A stretch of DNA of 64,000 nucleotides from contig NZ_QVNU01000003.1 in NCBI RefSeq assembly GCF_003545715.1, positions 186,001 to 250,000 of the forward strand, in the 5' to 3' direction. Position numbers and translations under genes: made by a program. This document shows, one piece after another, positions 9,355-53,240 of this stretch. Position 1 is the stretch's first letter, and every line of letters begins with the position of its first letter. Origin of the DNA: Taibaiella koreensis (GTDB taxonomy: Bacteria > Bacteroidota > Bacteroidia > Chitinophagales > Chitinophagaceae). The notes below the pieces were generated by a model. It made no database searches, had not been told where the DNA came from, and was given only the letters and a program-made list of their open reading frames with translations.

Positions 9355-9393
9355 CAAAGATATTCCAGGTACTGCGCAGCACACCTGCGCAGT
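9355..9393 (-). promoter_or_regulatory. hen1 promoter with paired TGCGCA operator
   Basis: The minus-strand -10 box TATCTTTG (9355-9362) matches TAnnTTTG exactly. Ten bases upstream of it is TGCGCA (9373-9378), and a second TGCGCA (9386-9391) follows 13 bp further, covering the place where a -33 box would be. The same arrangement occurs at 16830-16866, 19640-19676 and 19771-19806. The predicted transcript start is about 12 bp before the hen1 ATG, so the leader is very short. Confidence 0.7.
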
Positions 9394-9405
9394 GAGATTT
9401 TTTTT

Positions 9406-15111: not shown

Positions 15112-16209
15112 TTATTGTTTAATGAAGATCTGCTTCAACTGATCCACGATCTGTCCGCCCCCGGAGAGGCTGATTGTATGGATCTTCTCCGCGATCTTTT
15201 CTACATACTCCATTTCCTTTAGCTTATACAGCATCTGATTGTCTTCCATTAGCTTCGCGGTATTCAGCAAGCTCCTGGTGGATGCTGTTTCTTCTCTCCT
15301 GGTGATGATATTGGCCTGGGCTTTCTTTTCAGCGATCAATACCTGGTTCAGGATATCTTTAACATCGCCCGGAAGAATGATGTCTTTCACCCCGCAGTAG
15401 TGCAATGCGATACCCAGCCCGGCTACTCTTTCCATCGATTGCAGCCGCACCGCTTCTGCTATACGCTCCTTGCTATCCATCAGCTCGTCCAAGTTCAGGC
15501 CACCGATGAATTCGCGAAGCGCCAGCTGCATCAGGGTATAAAGCTGCTTGTCGTATTCACGGTTGTCGGCCAGGGCCTTCACAATATCCACTACTTTGTA
15601 CTGAATGGTGAAGTTGATCCGCAGCTGGGCTTTATCCCGGGTCAGGATCTCCTGTCCGTTGATGTCCATAGCCTGCTGCCGCATATCTGCCTTGGCAATA
15701 TGAACCGTGGTGCTGTTCTTCCACCAGTAATATTGACCAGCTTCCAGCAGTTTGCTGTATTTACCGTCGATGAATAGCAATGCCTGTTCGTAGGCTTCTA
15801 CCTTATAGGCACGCACATGGGCGTTTAGCGGCGCCTTGTCCAGGAGGTTACGGTCGATCGTCACCGGGATATCCAAGGCGCTTGTATCCGCTTTCAAAAA
15901 GGTATAGTTGCTCAGGCTGTTCCAGTAGAAATGCCTTCCCGGTCCCAGCACGGATCTAAAGTTCCCATTCAGGTAGAACAGGGCCAGCTCGTTATCCCCG
16001 ACCTCGTTTATCGTGATCGCCTCGGCAAAGCCGGGGTGCTGCAGCAATACATCCATATCATGGTTCAGCTGAAGTGGTCTGCTGCAGTCGTATACTTCAA
16101 CCTTTTCGCCAAAGCCCAGCCAGTAATCCCCTTCGGTTACTACGCGCTGGAATGATCCTTTCCGGAATACGAGGCCAACATGGTTGGCATTGATCCTGAT
16201 CTTTTTCAT
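15112..16209 (-). CDS. Slipin-type SPFH/band-7 protein
   Basis: 365 residues. The N-terminal third holds three repeats of a beta-unit (NHVGLVFRKGSF, NELALFYLNGNF, EQALLFIDGKYSKLL), each ending in a G-x-Y/F-W turn. The band-7 domain follows from about residue 180 (ILTRDKAQLRINFTIQYKVVD), then an AEKKAQANIITRREETA coiled coil. Unlike membrane slipins I see no transmembrane helix. Slipin genes are known companions of bacterial RNA-repair operons, where they may form a scaffold. It is preceded by a leader of about 600 nt carrying two tRNA-like modules. Confidence 0.85.
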   Translation of the reverse strand: MKKIRINANHVGLVFRKGSFQRVVTEGDYWLGFGEKVEVYDCSRPLQLNHDMDVLLQHPGFAEAITINEVGDNELALFYLNGNFRSVLGPGRHFYWNSLSNYTFLKADTSALDIPVTIDRNLLDKAPLNAHVRAYKVEAYEQALLFIDGKYSKLLEAGQYYWWKNSTTVHIAKADMRQQAMDINGQEILTRDKAQLRINFTIQYKVVDIVKALADNREYDKQLYTLMQLALREFIGGLNLDELMDSKERIAEAVRLQSMERVAGLGIALHYCGVKDIILPGDVKDILNQVLIAEKKAQANIITRREETASTRSLLNTAKLMEDNQMLYKLKEMEYVEKIAEKIHTISLSGGGQIVDQLKQIFIKQ

Positions 16210-16221
16210 CGTCTTTCGTTT

Positions 16222-16290
16222 TTATGCTTCTACTTTTTTTACAATAAATAGTGTGTCGCTGTATTCCATTTCCCCATAGCGGAAAGGCAT
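16222..16290 (-). CDS. Possible 22-residue ORF just upstream of slipin
   Basis: ATG at 16290 and TAA at 16222, ending 13 bp before the slipin start. The peptide MPFRYGEMEYSDTLFIVKKV plus EA looks protein-like, and the open frame continues upstream of the ATG for about ten codons. It could be a leader peptide coupling translation to slipin, or the remnant of a longer gene. I see no ribosome-binding site that decides this. Confidence 0.3.
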   Translation of the reverse strand: MPFRYGEMEYSDTLFIVKKVEA

Positions 16291-16513
16291 ACGTGCCTGG
16301 TTGTTCCCGGAGCGATCTTCCTGTTATCTGCAACCATTCCTGTTGCCAGAGCATAGCTGTGAGCATAGGGCGGAGGCTCCCGGCGACGCCATTGATGTCA
16401 GGCCTTTACAAAGCTTCAGACAAATTGCTTCCGGAAAAGATGTTCCCGGAAGCCGGAACACAGAACACACTATCAGGCGGGTGTTTGAAAAGTTACCCTT
16501 CTTTTTCTGATGG

Positions 16514-16574
16514 TTGTTGCTAAACCGCTAGCATTCCTGCGAATAGGAAACGGGAGTCGAACCCGTGTACACAA
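16514..16574 (-). ncRNA. Permuted tRNA-like module 2 (Y RNA-like)
   Basis: Minus-strand RNA order: closing strand TTGT, T-arm with stem ACGGG/CCCGT and loop TTCGACT (16550-16566), acceptor-like hairpin TTCCT/AGGAA (16534-16549) closed by a six-base loop, D-arm TGCT/AGCA with loop AGCGGTTT containing the GG pair (16518-16533), and closing strand ACAA. This is a tRNA elbow in circularly permuted order, with the acceptor end closed by a loop and the anticodon stem as the open end. The TTCGA and GG loops needed for T-loop/D-loop docking are both present. Not a translatable tRNA. Confidence 0.75.
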
Positions 16575-16576
16575 AG

Positions 16577-16640
16577 GCCGTGCTCTGACCATCTGAGCTA
16601 TCTCTGTCAAGAGAGCGGGACTCGAACCCGCGACCCCGGC
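16577..16640 (-). ncRNA. Permuted tRNA-like module 1 (Y RNA-like)
   Basis: Minus-strand RNA order: closing strand GCCG, T-arm GCGGG/CCCGC with loop TTCGAGT (16615-16631), acceptor-like hairpin TCTCT-TGAC-AGAGA (16601-16614), TA at the position of tRNA bases 8-9, D-arm GCTCAGATGGTCAGAGC (16582-16598), A as base 26, then closing strand CGGC. Every stem is fully paired. The layout equals a tRNA cut at the anticodon arm and joined through its acceptor ends, as described for the module of bacterial Y RNAs. It lies 2 nt from module 2, in the leader of the slipin transcript. Confidence 0.8.
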
Positions 16641-16699
16641 ATTAGAAAACAATCGGCATGCGTTGCGTCAGCATAGAAACGGACAGTGCCCATTCTACT

Positions 16700-16771
16700 T
16701 TGCCTGCTGTACGGAAACAGGCAACCGGTACGCTGTTCATGCGGGATTGCCATTCCCCTGTGACGGGGAAT
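16700..16771 (-). other. Two 5' hairpins upstream of the tRNA-like modules
   Basis: Between the promoter at 16830 and module 1 the RNA can form ATTCCCC-gtcaca-GGGGAAT (16752-16771) and TTGCCTG-n11-CAGGCAA (16700-16724). A smaller ATGC/GCAT hairpin lies near 16660. They could be the stem region of a Y RNA-like transcript or protein-binding sites. No ORF is convincing here. Confidence 0.55.
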
Positions 16772-16829: not shown

Positions 16830-16866
16830 CAAAGATGGCCTTAGTACTGCGCAGTGTATCTACGCG
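16830..16866 (-). promoter_or_regulatory. Promoter and paired operator for tRNA-like RNAs and slipin
   Basis: The minus-strand -10 box CATCTTTG (16830-16837) is one base off TAnnTTTG. Ten bases upstream is the palindrome ACTGCGCAGT (16846-16855, core TGCGCA at 16848-16853), and at 13 bp offset a second, weaker half, TACGCG (16861-16866). Geometry is identical to the hen1 and RING-TerD promoters. Predicted transcript start about 16823, giving a leader of about 610 nt before slipin. Confidence 0.65.
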
Positions 16867-16958
16867 ATGGAAAATATTTTTTTGATCTTGATTAATCTAT
16901 TGATAAATAGCATTAATAGGCACAAACATGCTTCTTGTCGGTGTATAACTAAAACGTA

Positions 16959-16977
16959 TGCGCATGTGTATTGCGTA
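16959..16977. promoter_or_regulatory. Additional distal paired operator
   Basis: TGCGCA (16959-16964) and TGCGTA (16972-16977) again stand 13 bp apart, here about 110 bp upstream of the RNA/slipin promoter operator and with no clear -10 box beside them. It may be an auxiliary site for looping, or mark an unrecognised promoter. Confidence 0.5.
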
Positions 16978-17007
16978 GTTATTTTGGTTATGGACAGCTA
17001 ATGACAT

Positions 17008-19351: not shown

Positions 19352-19627
19352 GAAGTAAGGAAATCTTGACCTGACCGGTGATGATAATAGAAAAGCTCGG
19401 TTTGGAGTCTTTGTAGTAAGCCTTTCTTGACCATTTCCGGGAAACGGGCCGGAGTCGAACCGGCGACCTGGACGTCCTGTGCGTAAGAAGTAAGCCTTAG
19501 TTGACCCATGGGGTAATGTTAAAGCTACCTGCTCTACCGCTGAGCTACCGTCTCCTTGCTCCATAAAGATAATTACCGGCGTGGGATCATTAACAGTGAT
19601 GTGTTGGAAGTAACGCCGTTTTGACCT
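19352..19627. repeat. Four 21-bp direct repeats in the RING-TerD leader
   Basis: Copies at 19352-19372, 19413-19433, 19487-19507 and 19607-19627. The plus-strand consensus is GAAGTAAG-n6-TTGACC, most degenerate in the middle. Start-to-start spacing is 61, 74 and 120 bp. The third copy lies inside the central insert of the tRNA-like RNA, and the fourth begins at the predicted transcript start. Spacers are unrelated to each other and of unequal length, so this is not a CRISPR array. Confidence 0.75.
19441..19554 (-). ncRNA. tRNA-like RNA in normal order with enlarged central insert
   Basis: Minus strand: acceptor GAGACGG (19548-19554) pairs over 7 bp, one of them G-U, with CCGTTTC (19441-19447). 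Then TA, D-arm GCTC-AGCGGTA-GAGC (19531-19545), A26, and T-arm GCCGG/CCGGC with loop TTCGACT (19448-19464). Instead of a normal anticodon arm and short variable loop there are about 66 nt. They include a possible GGTAG/TTACC stem with an 8-base loop, the 21-bp repeat, and the palindrome GGACGTCC. No CCA is encoded. It is not a functional elongator tRNA by the usual criteria; more likely a decoy, sensor or Y RNA-like element in the 5' leader of the RING-TerD mRNA. Confidence 0.75.
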
Positions 19628-19639
19628 TCATGGATAAAG

Positions 19640-19676
19640 CAAAGATGCACCTGGTATTGCGCAATATACCTGCGTT
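19640..19676 (-). promoter_or_regulatory. RING-TerD promoter with paired operator
   Basis: Minus-strand -10 box CATCTTTG (19640-19647); TGCGCA within ATTGCGCAAT (core 19658-19663); second half TGCGTT (19671-19676) at 13 bp offset. Spacing matches the slipin/RNA and hen1 promoters base for base. Predicted start near 19633 leaves a leader of about 340 nt holding the repeats and the tRNA-like RNA. Confidence 0.68.
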
Positions 19677-19770
19677 GTGTTTAGAAAATGGCTAACTATT
19701 TTTTAAAGTATTTGATAATGATTTATTTAGGTGAGAAAATAATTATCAAAAGGACTGATCGGAAAACAAT

Positions 19771-19806
19771 TGCGCAGCTCTATTGCGTATTACAGGTATC
19801 TTTTTG
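19771..19806 (+). promoter_or_regulatory. WYL regulator promoter with paired operator
   Basis: On the plus strand TGCGCA (19771-19776) and TGCGTA (19784-19789) are 13 bp apart and followed, after 7-9 bases, by TATCTTTTTG (19797-19806), a stretched -10 box. It drives the regulator divergently from RING-TerD, which suggests autoregulation. Confidence 0.6.
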
Positions 19807-19832
19807 TAGCTTCATCCTCCAAAATCTTTATC

Positions 19833-20864
19833 ATGGCGATCAATAAACTGGCGCTGATCCGTTACAAAACCATCGACGACTGCCTGCGCAACCGTTTCCG
19901 TAAGTGGACGCTTGAAGACCTTATTGAAAAGGTAGCAGAGGTGCTCTATGAACGCGAAGGGATCGTGACCGGTGTGAGCCGCCGTACTATACAAGGCGAT
20001 ATTCAGATCATGCGTAGCGACAAGCTGGGCTATAATGCACCCATCATTGTTACCGACCGGAAGTACTATAGTTACGAGGATCGTGATTTCAGCATTACCA
20101 AGGCGCCGATCAATAATGCGGACGTGGATAAGATGAAAGAGATCGTTGGTGTGCTGAAGCAATTCAACGGCTTCAATTATTTCGATGAGATGAGCGAGAT
20201 GATCGCGAAGCTCGAAAACAATTTGTACAAATCCACCAATACCAGCCGTAACCACATCCAGTTCGAGGGCAATCAGCAACTGAAGGGTCTGGAGCATATC
20301 AACCCTTTGTACCAGGCTATATTGAACAGCCGCTCGCTGCTGATCGAGTATAAATCGTTCAAGGCGCTGCAATCGCAGCAAAGCATTTACTATCCCTATT
20401 TGCTCAAGGAATACCGCAACCGTTGGTTTGTGATCTGCAAGCCGAAAAAGGGCGCGACCCTGGCGACCCTGGCGCTTGACCGTATCATCGAATTCCAGGA
20501 GCTGCCACACGAGCCTTTCGTCGATTATAAGGGAATAGACTTTGATGTCTACTATAGCGACTTGCTGGGTGTTACCAAAAGCGAAAGAGACCGTGCGCAC
20601 AAAGTGATCCTGGAAGTGGACCGCTACAATGCACCTTATGTGCTGACCAAGCCCCTTCATGCATCACAAAAGGTGCTGGCCGAGCAGGAAGACAGTATTA
20701 TTATCCGCATTGACGTGGTGCCCAATTTCGAGCTGGAGCGGGAGATACTAGGTTTCGGCGAATGCATGAAGGTGCTGGGCCCGCGTTTCCTGGCGTCCCG
20801 TATACGGAAGCGTCTGGCCAAGGCGGCGGGGCGTTACCAACCCGACTCAAAAGAGGAAGGGTAG
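19833..20864 (+). CDS. WYL-domain transcriptional regulator of the RNA-repair island
   Basis: 343 residues from the ATG at 19833; an upstream frame extension to 19770 runs through the operator and is rejected. The N-terminal winged-helix part ends in VSRRTIQGDIQIMRSDKLGYNAPI, typical of WYL regulators. The WYL domain follows: SRSLLIEYKSF, then PYLLKEYRNRWFVICK, then LALDRIIEFQ; a C-terminal extension ends FGECMKVLGPRFLASRIRKR. WYL domains sense ligands that include nucleic acids and nucleotides. Divergent transcription from RING-TerD and a shared operator in four promoters make it the likely master regulator (inference). Its 3' end overlaps the converging gene by 18 bp. Confidence 0.9.
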   Translation: MAINKLALIRYKTIDDCLRNRFRKWTLEDLIEKVAEVLYEREGIVTGVSRRTIQGDIQIMRSDKLGYNAPIIVTDRKYYSYEDRDFSITKAPINNADVDKMKEIVGVLKQFNGFNYFDEMSEMIAKLENNLYKSTNTSRNHIQFEGNQQLKGLEHINPLYQAILNSRSLLIEYKSFKALQSQQSIYYPYLLKEYRNRWFVICKPKKGATLATLALDRIIEFQELPHEPFVDYKGIDFDVYYSDLLGVTKSERDRAHKVILEVDRYNAPYVLTKPLHASQKVLAEQEDSIIIRIDVVPNFELEREILGFGECMKVLGPRFLASRIRKRLAKAAGRYQPDSKEEG

Positions 20865-30520: not shown

Positions 30521-30550
30521 TTTGCCGTTCCGATTTAATATTTACCTTCG
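30521..30550 (+). promoter_or_regulatory. Promoter of the thiamine operon
   Basis: TTTG (30521-30524), 18 bases, TACCTTCG (30543-30550; 7 of 8 bases of TAnnTTTG). Transcription would begin a few bases before the TPP aptamer. Confidence 0.55.
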
Positions 30551-30552
30551 TT

Positions 30553-30633
30553 CCGCTTTAGGGGTGCCTTAGTGCTGAGATAATACCCTACGAACCTGAT
30601 GCAGTTAGTACTGCCGAAGGGAAAAGTAAGACT
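30553..30633 (+). promoter_or_regulatory. TPP riboswitch (THI element)
   Basis: All conserved blocks of the TPP aptamer are present in order: GGGGTGCC, then TGCTGAGATAATACCC, then GAACCTGATGCAGTTAGTACTGC and the closing GAAGGGAAA. It precedes thiS by about 80 nt. Thiamine pyrophosphate binding should shut down the whole thiS-to-thiF operon, probably by hiding the thiS start region, since no strong terminator stem follows. Confidence 0.95.
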
Positions 30634-30712
30634 ATTCCGTGTGCCGGTATACCTGTATGGTATAGCGATCTACGCACCGCTACTGTCGTTCCTGGAGCCA
30701 ATCTGTTTGGGA

Positions 30713-52865: not shown

Positions 52866-52869
52866 TTTG

Positions 52870-53240
52870 TGGAGCCGGCGGGAATCGAACCCGCGTCCAA
52901 ACACCGGTTGAAAAAGTCTTCTACATGCTTATTCCGTTATTATTTGTCGGCGATGATCAGGAAGCGGACAAACCAAATCATTACTTAGCTGGATGGTCTT
53001 AAGTTGCAGGCACAGCCTTCTGCAACAGCAATCTGCTTTCTTTTTGAGTCGGCGGCGGGGCTAGGTAGCAGACAAACCTGCCCGGGCGGCCCTAATGACT
53101 ATCTAATTACTAATTAGGCAGCCATGGCATACTGAGTATTGCCATTTGAAGTTTGAGTATTCAGATTAAAGCGCTAATTACACAACGCGCTGCATGCTTA
53201 CACCCTCCCCGCCATGGTGCTGTCAAAACCGGGCGGCCCC
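52870..53240 (-). ncRNA. ssrA: Transfer-messenger RNA
   Basis: About 371 nt. Acceptor ends GGGGCCG (5') and CGGCTCC-A (3') pair over 7 bp, and the T-arm GCGGGTTCGATTCCCGC is canonical. The tag frame ends ...NTQYAMAA followed by TAA, near + strand 53111-53150; the C-terminal YAMAA fits Bacteroidota tags. The alanyl identity base pair region and CCA are not encoded. Pseudoknot-rich GC blocks follow the tag. Its role is trans-translation rescue of stalled ribosomes, complementary to RF-H in the repair island. Confidence 0.95.

What the first reader, a model, noticed from the sequence alone, without database searches (positions are those of the whole stretch)
16514..16640. Two tandem circularly permuted tRNA-like modules in the slipin leader
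Each module runs T-arm, acceptor hairpin closed by a short loop, D-arm, with the anticodon stem as the open end. All stems pair (GCGGG/CCCGC, TCTCT/AGAGA, GCTC/GAGC; ACGGG/CCCGT, TTCCT/AGGAA, TGCT/AGCA), and both have TTCGA T-loops and GG D-loops. This is the topology described for bacterial Y RNA modules, but here they occur as a double unit and no Ro60 gene is visible. They could be tRNA decoys, sensors for the repair enzymes, or scaffolds for slipin or RING-TerD.
Basis: partly seen in the sequence, partly recalled or inferred. Interest (0 to 1): 0.9.

Follow-up and report, generated by a model that had tools for sequence, protein, structure and literature searches.

The report
Paired tRNA mimics in RNA-repair leader
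The RNA upstream of a bacterial RNA-repair gene carries two tRNA look-alikes whose parts are in shuffled order, and the arrangement is conserved next to that gene in dozens of related bacteria, so it is very probably a real RNA whose job is still to be tested.

Summary
Minus strand 16640-16514 holds two tandem permuted tRNA modules (T-arm, closed acceptor hairpin, D-arm, flank-closed anticodon stem). Rfam YrlA matches module 1 below its cut-off (39.1 bits, E 6e-7). A covariance model built without Taibaiella finds the pair at E 7e-23. In 39 relatives 37 of 41 pairs change on both sides. The tertiary 15-48 pair covaries inside each permuted module (p 5e-7, 2e-7) but not in conventional order (p 0.84). 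Of 70 Bacteroidota slipin loci, 66 have a T-arm within 720 nt upstream and 51 at least two; control windows 1 of 262. The modules sit in a ~600-nt leader with a 5' domain, a pseudoknot and a long-range helix ending 37 nt before the slipin AUG. Against: the module pair is not unusually stable by energy alone. No Ro60 gene was found. Best reading: RNA partner of a slipin RNA-repair assembly; cis regulation is the main rival. A tRNA-like RNA partner for Band-7 proteins was, as I recall, proposed in 2016; the permuted double form is filed as a new variant. Function is inferred.

The parts
16845..16866 (-). operator-like dyad CGCGTA-N7-TGCGCAGTA, with a CATCTTTG promoter-like element at 16837-16830
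   Evidence: 3 mismatches to the pattern; 10 matches in the window against 1.83 expected, 0 of 100 shuffles reach 10. Binding by the WYL protein and the start site are inferred
16956..16980 (.). second operator-like dyad upstream of the leader
   Evidence: 3 mismatches
16665..16733 (-). 5' domain: closing stem GCGT 16733-16730 with ACGC 16668-16665, hairpin GCCTG/CAGGC, stem TAGAA/TTCTA (16697-16674), TATGCTG motif
   Evidence: aligned in 38 chosen loci; compensatory stems CAGA/TCTG, CAAC/GTTG, CAGC/GCTG, TATCA/TGATA, TATTG/CAATA read by eye (coordinates)
16577..16640 (-). module 1: flank-formed anticodon stem GCCG/CGGC, variable loop GGGTC, T-arm 16631-16615, acceptor hairpin 16614-16601, U8-A9, D-arm 16598-16582
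16514..16574 (-). module 2: flank stem TTGT/ACAA, T-arm 16566-16550, acceptor hairpin 16549-16534, D-arm 16533-16518
16479..16505 (-). H-type pseudoknot: S1 AAAAG 16505-16501 with CTTTT 16492-16488; S2 GGGT 16498-16495 with ACCC 16482-16479
   Evidence: read by eye; compensated in relatives (GGGC/GCCC L001; CAAG/CTTG and GGTC/GACC L005; CACC/GGTG L004; CAGC/GCTG L045) in the sequences; no statistical test was made
16247..16474 (-). 3' domain closed by a long-range helix: GATAGTGTGTT 16474-16464 with GACACACTATT 16257-16247, ending 37 nt before the slipin AUG
   Evidence: 35 chosen loci: mean helix score 23.5 against 18.0 for mismatched loci, 0 of 5000 permutations reach it, 13 of 35 exceed the 95th percentile singly (the regions compared were chosen after seeing helices by eye); also in the fold
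15112..16209 (-). slipin / Band_7 gene directly downstream
   Evidence: Pfam Band_7 E 9.6e-32; AlphaFold2 mean pLDDT 81, pTM 0.58, three beta repeats, SPFH domain, long helix
5885..15062 (-). RNA-repair genes downstream: S24-like peptidase, RNase_T exonuclease, RlaP-type nucleotidyltransferases (two above the Pfam cut-off, a third just below it), T4-Rnl1-like ligase, two PNKP kinase-phosphatases, Hen1, PNKP-type ligase
19770..20864 (+). WYL-WCX regulator with a weak HTH match, divergent
   Evidence: Pfam WYL 5.5e-9, WCX 1.1e-9, HTH_11 0.0065 below cut-off; PADLOC WYL 9.5e-22

Best explanation
SHOWN by comparison: the two modules are conserved permuted tRNA-like folds that keep the tertiary signature of a tRNA elbow, and they are the core of a ~600-nt structured RNA directly upstream of a subfamily of SPFH (slipin) genes in RNA-repair operons. 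INFERRED: the RNA is made from the operator-controlled promoter near 16830 when the WYL regulator senses RNA damage, and serves as the RNA partner of the slipin oligomer made from the same transcript. Its tRNA-shaped modules cannot be charged (their acceptor ends are closed by short loops), so they act as docking sites that hold tRNA-handling proteins of the operon (ligase, nucleotidyltransferases, Hen1/PNKP) on the slipin assembly, much as the YrlA module tethers PNPase to Rsr (PMC8394870, passages). The anticodon arm of module 2, conserved in shape but not in anticodon, would present a generic anticodon loop to those enzymes.
For: Two-sided changes in every helix. Permuted partners: acceptor hairpins 85% and 86% paired against 47% for the conventional acceptor, and 15-48 covariation only inside permuted modules (p 6e-5 and 1.7e-4 after collapsing to 34 of 47 rows at 70% identity, conventional 0.82). 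Held-out detection of the window. Linkage: 16 of the 20 slipin-bearing genomes among 395 Bacteroidota have a hit of at least 76 bits 249-522 nt from the slipin match. T-arms upstream in 66 of 70 loci against 1 of 262 control windows. Acceptor loops of 3-6 nt in 41 of 47 (module 1) and 38 of 47 (module 2) rows. Weak fold likeness of slipin to major vault protein: seven MVP chains among the 50 listed, TM 0.36-0.49 by query length, E 1e-9 to 1e-8, rmsd 12-14 A. [quoted passage not shown]
Against: No RNA-seq, binding or structure data. The RNA lies in the 5' leader and, where the long-range helix is clear to me, it ends 25-67 nt before the AUG, which suits cis regulation as well. Energy alone does not favour the modules. 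The vault likeness is weak: stomatin has the best E-values and no MVP chain is found by sequence. The module-2 anticodon arm is lost in the window itself. Most Proteobacterial leaders look like conventional cloverleaves (12 of 16 by eye), so permutation is not needed for whatever the RNA does.
Confidence: 0.5

Rival explanations
1. Cis-regulatory tRNA mimic: a repair enzyme or tRNA-binding protein of the operon binds the modules in its own mRNA leader and lowers slipin expression; damaged tRNAs compete it away and switch expression on.
For: Adjacency to slipin in all 16 linked hits; the long-range helix ends close to the AUG; tRNA-like leaders before slipin in three phyla; the tRNA-like yjdF leader acts in cis on translation (PMC9142559, abstract and passages). 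The E. coli thrS operator precedent is recalled.
Against: About 600 nt with several conserved domains is large for an autoregulatory operator; transcription already appears to be under the WYL regulator. I did not look for a conserved alternative structure at the AUG.
Confidence: 0.3
2. Decoy: the modules, above all the anticodon arm of module 2, absorb anticodon nucleases or other attackers of tRNA.
For: By alignment columns a 7-nt anticodon loop in 42 of 47 rows, U33 in 35 of 42, purine 37 in 40 of 42; ordinary tRNA genes upstream in 12 of 16 loci scanned, which fits a spare-tRNA logic; YrlA has been suggested as a competitive inhibitor of a nuclease (PMC7790460, passages).
Against: 20 different anticodons among 42 loops; module 1, and both modules of the window, have no anticodon loop; one copy per operon is poor stoichiometry for a decoy.
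Confidence: 0.12
3. Permuted tRNA gene: the operon's ligase joins the anticodon ends and the acceptor loop is then cut, giving a working tRNA, as in red algae.
For: The order (3' half before 5' half) is that of permuted tRNA genes (PMC3978253, passages); an RNA ligase is in the operon.
Against: Acceptor loops are mostly 3-6 nt, with CCA in the loop in only 2 and 3 of 47 rows; module 2 is not open at the anticodon in most relatives; anticodons vary.
Confidence: 0.03
4. Decaying tandem tRNA genes with no function.
For: Tandem tRNA genes also score with the model: 7 of the 9 hits of at least 73 bits that are not the slipin-adjacent ones were inspected, and all 7 are ordinary tRNA genes.
Against: Two-sided changes in all helices, 15-48 covariation in the permuted register, no ARAGORN tRNA in the region.
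Confidence: 0.02

Closest known systems
Band-7/slipin-associated tRNA-like RNA (Burroughs and Aravind 2016, Nucleic Acids Res 44:8525)
   Same: A tRNA-like noncoding RNA proposed as cognate partner of SPFH/Band-7 proteins in RNA-repair operons. Recalled from the abstract; the paper is not held. [quoted passage not shown]
   Different: I could not check whether permutation, the double unit, the pseudoknot or the long-range helix were described there. This is the main limit on the novelty claim.
Bacterial Y RNA YrlA (Rfam RF02553)
   Same: Module 1: closing stem, T-arm, closed acceptor hairpin, UA, D-arm; E 6.1e-7. YrlA is also linked to RNA repair.
   Different: Below the Rfam cut-off (39.1 against 69 bits); two modules, the second usually with an anticodon arm; no Rsr/Ro60; partner gene is a slipin; part of a ~600-nt leader.
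Circularly permuted tRNA genes (algae, archaea; PMC3978253)
   Same: 3' half precedes 5' half, joined at the acceptor end.
   Different: Very short acceptor loop, no CCA in most, two units fused in a larger RNA.
yjdF riboswitch (PMC9142559)
   Same: tRNA-like elbow in the leader of a bacterial gene.
   Different: Single tRNA-like fold with a ligand site; I saw no link to RNA repair in the passages read.
Vault particle (major vault protein and vault RNA)
   Same: SPFH-type domain with beta repeats (weak fold match) and an accompanying small RNA.
   Different: No evidence of a cage here; vault RNA is not, to my knowledge, a permuted tRNA.

Membership tests
YrlA (RF02553) | score above the Rfam gathering threshold (69 bits) | tested here: not met
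   39.1 bits
YrlA (RF02553) | permuted tRNA-like module: T-arm, closed acceptor hairpin, D-arm | tested here: met
YrlA (RF02553) | single module on a long basal stem formed by the RNA's ends | tested here: not met
   in the alignment 5 of 13 pairs of the two outer stems are non-standard and their 3' strands would have to use the T2 arm; a second module follows directly
YrlA (RF02553) | Rsr/Ro60 (TROVE) gene in the genome | tested here: not met
   no match at E <= 1 in the assembly (99.65% complete); control rings in 1 of 14
functional tRNA gene | cloverleaf with paired acceptor, called by ARAGORN | tested here: not met
   one search finds only the tmRNA; conventional acceptor 47% paired over 47 rows. 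Rfam tRNA does score 33 bits, over its cut-off of 29
Band-7-associated tRNA-like RNA (2016) | tRNA-like RNA sharing an operon with an SPFH/Band-7 gene in an RNA-repair system | tested here: met
   the definition is recalled plus one citing passage; co-transcription is inferred from position
Band-7-associated tRNA-like RNA (2016) | same secondary structure as the published RNA | not testable with these tools
   paper not held
permuted tRNA gene | yields a CCA-ended, charged tRNA | not testable with these tools
   sequence argues against it
vault RNA | bound to a major-vault-protein cage | not testable with these tools
   only the fold likeness of slipin was tested

The most novel reading that the evidence does not exclude
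A large, so far uncatalogued bacterial RNA class built around chained, re-partnered tRNA modules is the RNA half of a vault-like SPFH particle: a damage-induced ribonucleoprotein in which tRNA mimics organise tRNA-repair enzymes, found in Bacteroidota and, with related leaders, in Bacillota and Proteobacteria including E. coli.
Probability: 0.3. Interest if true: 0.9.

Novelty: new variant of a known kind. Interest (0 to 1): 0.66.

Why it matters
It gives a specific, testable structure for the RNA that accompanies slipin proteins in RNA-repair operons, with tertiary-pair covariation pointing to real tRNA-like folds in permuted order. It suggests how a tandem tRNA pair can become a mimic by swapping acceptor partners while keeping linear order. 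A slipin leader with a T-arm-like element (by eye) is present in 1624 of 5426 complete E. coli genomes, so the old question of what SPFH or vault-like proteins do with small RNAs could be approached in a common laboratory species.

Tried and rejected
Conventional cloverleaf between D1 and T2 (the Rfam tRNA hit at 16607-16542): rejected, acceptor 47% paired and no 15-48 covariation. Chance hairpins: rejected. RING/TerD protein as a hidden Ro60: its model matches TerD at E 2e-4 and none of the 50 listed PDB matches is Ro60; no PDB sequence match at E <= 1. Phage origin: no slipin match in 50,697 phage records. Energy z-score as proof: failed for the module pair. Hits of R1 other than the 16 slipin-adjacent ones: 9 of at least 73 bits, 7 inspected, all ordinary tandem tRNA genes; G257:C43:183851 (about 1.7 kb upstream of a slipin) and G359:C32:267 were not inspected.

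Rows and exceptions. Four of 70 loci show no T-arm by my strict rule: L071, L074 and L076 hold a GTTCGA motif with an imperfect stem; L077 is a slipin fragment with an in-frame stop and was left as it is. No two of the 70 upstream regions share more than 36% of their 20-mers. Of 51 loci with T-arms spaced 50-100 nt, 47 were aligned in A1 (left out: L035, duplicate of L001; L010, L030, L067, odd spacing) and 39 in A2 (also left out: L001, L015, L036 of Taibaiella, to keep the window test held out, and L024, L028, L053, L054, L066). Loci were selected for the T-arm pattern, so T-arm pairing and U54, C56, A58 are not independent evidence; the other helices and positions are. Four of the 20 slipin genomes lack a 76-bit hit: G190 (56.7 bits, adjacent), G084 (63.2 and 59.5 bits 1.3-1.7 kb off; an adjacent 67.6-bit hit appears), G002 and G249 (none listed at E <= 1e-8). 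Searches used a chosen 38 and 35 of the loci.

Full report
The site. The window lies in a Chitinophagaceae genome of the same genus as Taibaiella helva (slipin 78% identical). On the minus strand a RING/TerD gene is followed by an 849-nt intergenic stretch, then slipin and RNA-repair genes: RNase_T exonuclease, RlaP-type nucleotidyltransferases (two above the Pfam cut-off, a third just below), a T4-Rnl1-like ligase, two PNKP kinase-phosphatases, Hen1 and a PNKP-type ligase; a WYL-WCX regulator is divergent. The finding lies in the stretch before slipin.

The modules are real. Rfam finds YrlA over module 1 at E 6.1e-7, below the family's cut-off, and tRNA over the overlap at 33 bits. Slipin relatives were collected: 14 loci from named genomes, 20 of 395 sampled Bacteroidota and 44 of 195 of the family (the last two overlap). 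Of 70 Bacteroidota slipin loci with at least 400 nt upstream, 66 hold a T-arm within 720 nt upstream and 51 at least two; in 262 control windows from 12 of the loci, 1 holds one and 0 hold two.

Topology. In 47 aligned loci (A1) the acceptor hairpins are 85% and 86% paired with up to six pair types per position, D1 99%, D2 75%, the flank-formed anticodon stem of module 1 81%, and the anticodon hairpin after module 2 97%; the conventional acceptor partner is 47% paired. On the 39-row alignment A2, 37 of 41 pairs have changes on both sides, and the covariation score is 0.635 against 0.209 (sd 0.010) for shuffles and at most 0.148 for slid partners. Helix 7 (D2) is only 60% paired in A2, which I put down to gap placement in the D-loop.

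Tertiary evidence. tRNA position 15 pairs with 48 (the Levitt pair; recalled numbering). Inside permuted module 1 the counts are G-C 36, A-U 8, A-C 3; in module 2 G-C 16, A-U 24, G-U 2, A-C 3, other 2 (Fisher p 5e-7 and 1.9e-7). For the conventional D1 x T2 combination p is 0.84, for the cross combination 0.62. After collapsing rows at 70% identity (34 of 47) the values are 6e-5, 1.7e-4, 0.82 and 0.56. Related rows are still not independent, but the contrast between registers uses the same rows. U8, A14 and G18 of module 1 are invariant in 47 rows; the column taken as G19 is mixed (G in 23 of 47), probably through D-loop gaps. I take this as good evidence for L-shaped permuted folds.

Held-out test and specificity. 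Model R1, with no Taibaiella sequence, finds the window at 16642-16498 minus, 76.2 bits, E 7.1e-23. Over 395 Bacteroidota genomes 25 listed hits reach 73 bits: 16 lie 249-522 nt from the slipin match, in 16 of the 20 slipin genomes; of the 9 others, 7 were inspected and all are ordinary tandem tRNA genes, some with near-identical acceptors such as Phe-Phe and Gly-Gly. So the model alone does not separate permuted modules from such tRNA pairs; position and ARAGORN do.

The larger RNA. A 5' domain with compensatory stems precedes module 1 (38 loci, by eye). An H-type pseudoknot follows module 2 (by eye). A long-range helix joins the sequence after the pseudoknot to a strand near the slipin AUG: mean helix score 23.5 in 35 loci against 18.0 for mismatched loci, 0 of 5000 permutations; only 13 of 35 exceed the 95th percentile singly, in some loci the best helix lies elsewhere, and the regions were chosen after seeing helices by eye. 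In the window it is 11 pairs, 16474-16464 with 16257-16247. The 585-nt leader folds better than all 100 shuffles (z -3.24), while the module pair does not (z -0.61, 55 of 200 shuffles as good). No Rfam family covers the leader at its cut-off except the partial tRNA match.

Other phyla. Slipin was found in 5 of 299 genomes of the phylum of Robinsoniella and 16 of 299 of the phylum of Aliikangiella, and their leaders were read by eye. Of the five, L128 and L129 (and the named L011 and L063; L012 is the same genome as L128) show one permuted module with an anticodon-like hairpin, L131 a T-arm and hairpin, L130 no motif, L132 T-arms only about 0.9 kb off. Of the sixteen, 12 show a conventional-order tRNA-like element, mostly with a short acceptor, preceded by a second T-arm or a tRNA; the others differ. 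Rfam tRNA scores three of the three Proteobacterial loci given to it, and L133 also a partial YrlA match of 33 bits. In E. coli (L061) and Citrobacter (L062) my strict rule finds no T-arm; by eye there is a 4-bp T-arm and a hairpin, and R1 gives only 17.2 and 14.6 bits. That E. coli leader occurs in 1624 of 5426 complete genomes, behind a sequence resembling a sigma-54 promoter (recalled consensus); rtcR is annotated beside the Citrobacter copy.

Regulation. A dyad TRCGCA-N7-TGCGCARTA occurs at five places of the cluster (9370, 16845, 16956, 19655, 19768), which make 8 of 10 loose matches in the window against 1.83 expected; those at 9370, 16845 and 19655 are followed by ATCTTTG. That the WYL protein binds them is inferred.

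The partner protein. The slipin model has three beta repeats before the SPFH domain and, by my reading, no N-terminal membrane segment. It matches stomatin best by E-value (5e-15, query TM 0.42); seven major vault protein chains are among the 50 listed matches, with query TM 0.36-0.49, E 1e-9 to 1e-8 and rmsd 12-14 A. This weak likeness fits the statement in PMC13404743 (passage) on bacterial MVP homologs and operon ncRNAs.

Mechanism and standing. The RNA's identity is well supported; its action is inferred. I favour an RNA scaffold for a slipin repair assembly (0.5), with cis regulation second (0.3). In the listings of eight literature searches I saw no description of this RNA; the 2016 paper that, as I recall, reports a tRNA-like partner of Band-7 proteins is not in the library, so I file this as a new variant of a known kind.

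Noticed in passing
window 19440-19554 (-): A different tRNA-like leader precedes the RING/TerD gene: conventional order, 7-bp acceptor, about 60-nt insert at the anticodon, and repeats of GGTCAA-N-CTTACT in and around it. A T-arm lies within 240 nt upstream in 11 of 13 homologs, one of them (L162) a fragment.
   Followed up: partly
L080-L096, mostly 1-4 kb upstream of slipin: Arrays of 1-14 ordinary tRNA genes, no anticodon repeated within a locus, in 12 of 16 loci scanned with ARAGORN; in L092 and L096 followed by an RNaseH_like (PF04308) gene.
   Followed up: partly
window 9370-9394, 16845-16866, 16956-16980, 19655-19676, 19768-19792: Shared operator-like dyads that may define a WYL-controlled regulon.
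   Followed up: partly
E. coli complete genomes; L061, L062, L163: Slipin leader in 1624 of 5426 genomes, with a nucleotidyltransferase gene next to slipin in the three records viewed; rtcR divergent in Citrobacter.
   Followed up: partly
window 30550-30639 (+) and 52867-53240 (-): TPP riboswitch and tmRNA, both over the Rfam cut-off.
   Followed up: no
L133-L136, L139, L142-L148 (Proteobacteria slipin leaders): Same linear order of tRNA elements but apparently conventional pairing, some with a CCA-ended tRNA directly before the tRNA-like element, suggesting how re-partnering could turn tandem tRNAs into permuted modules (by eye).
   Followed up: no
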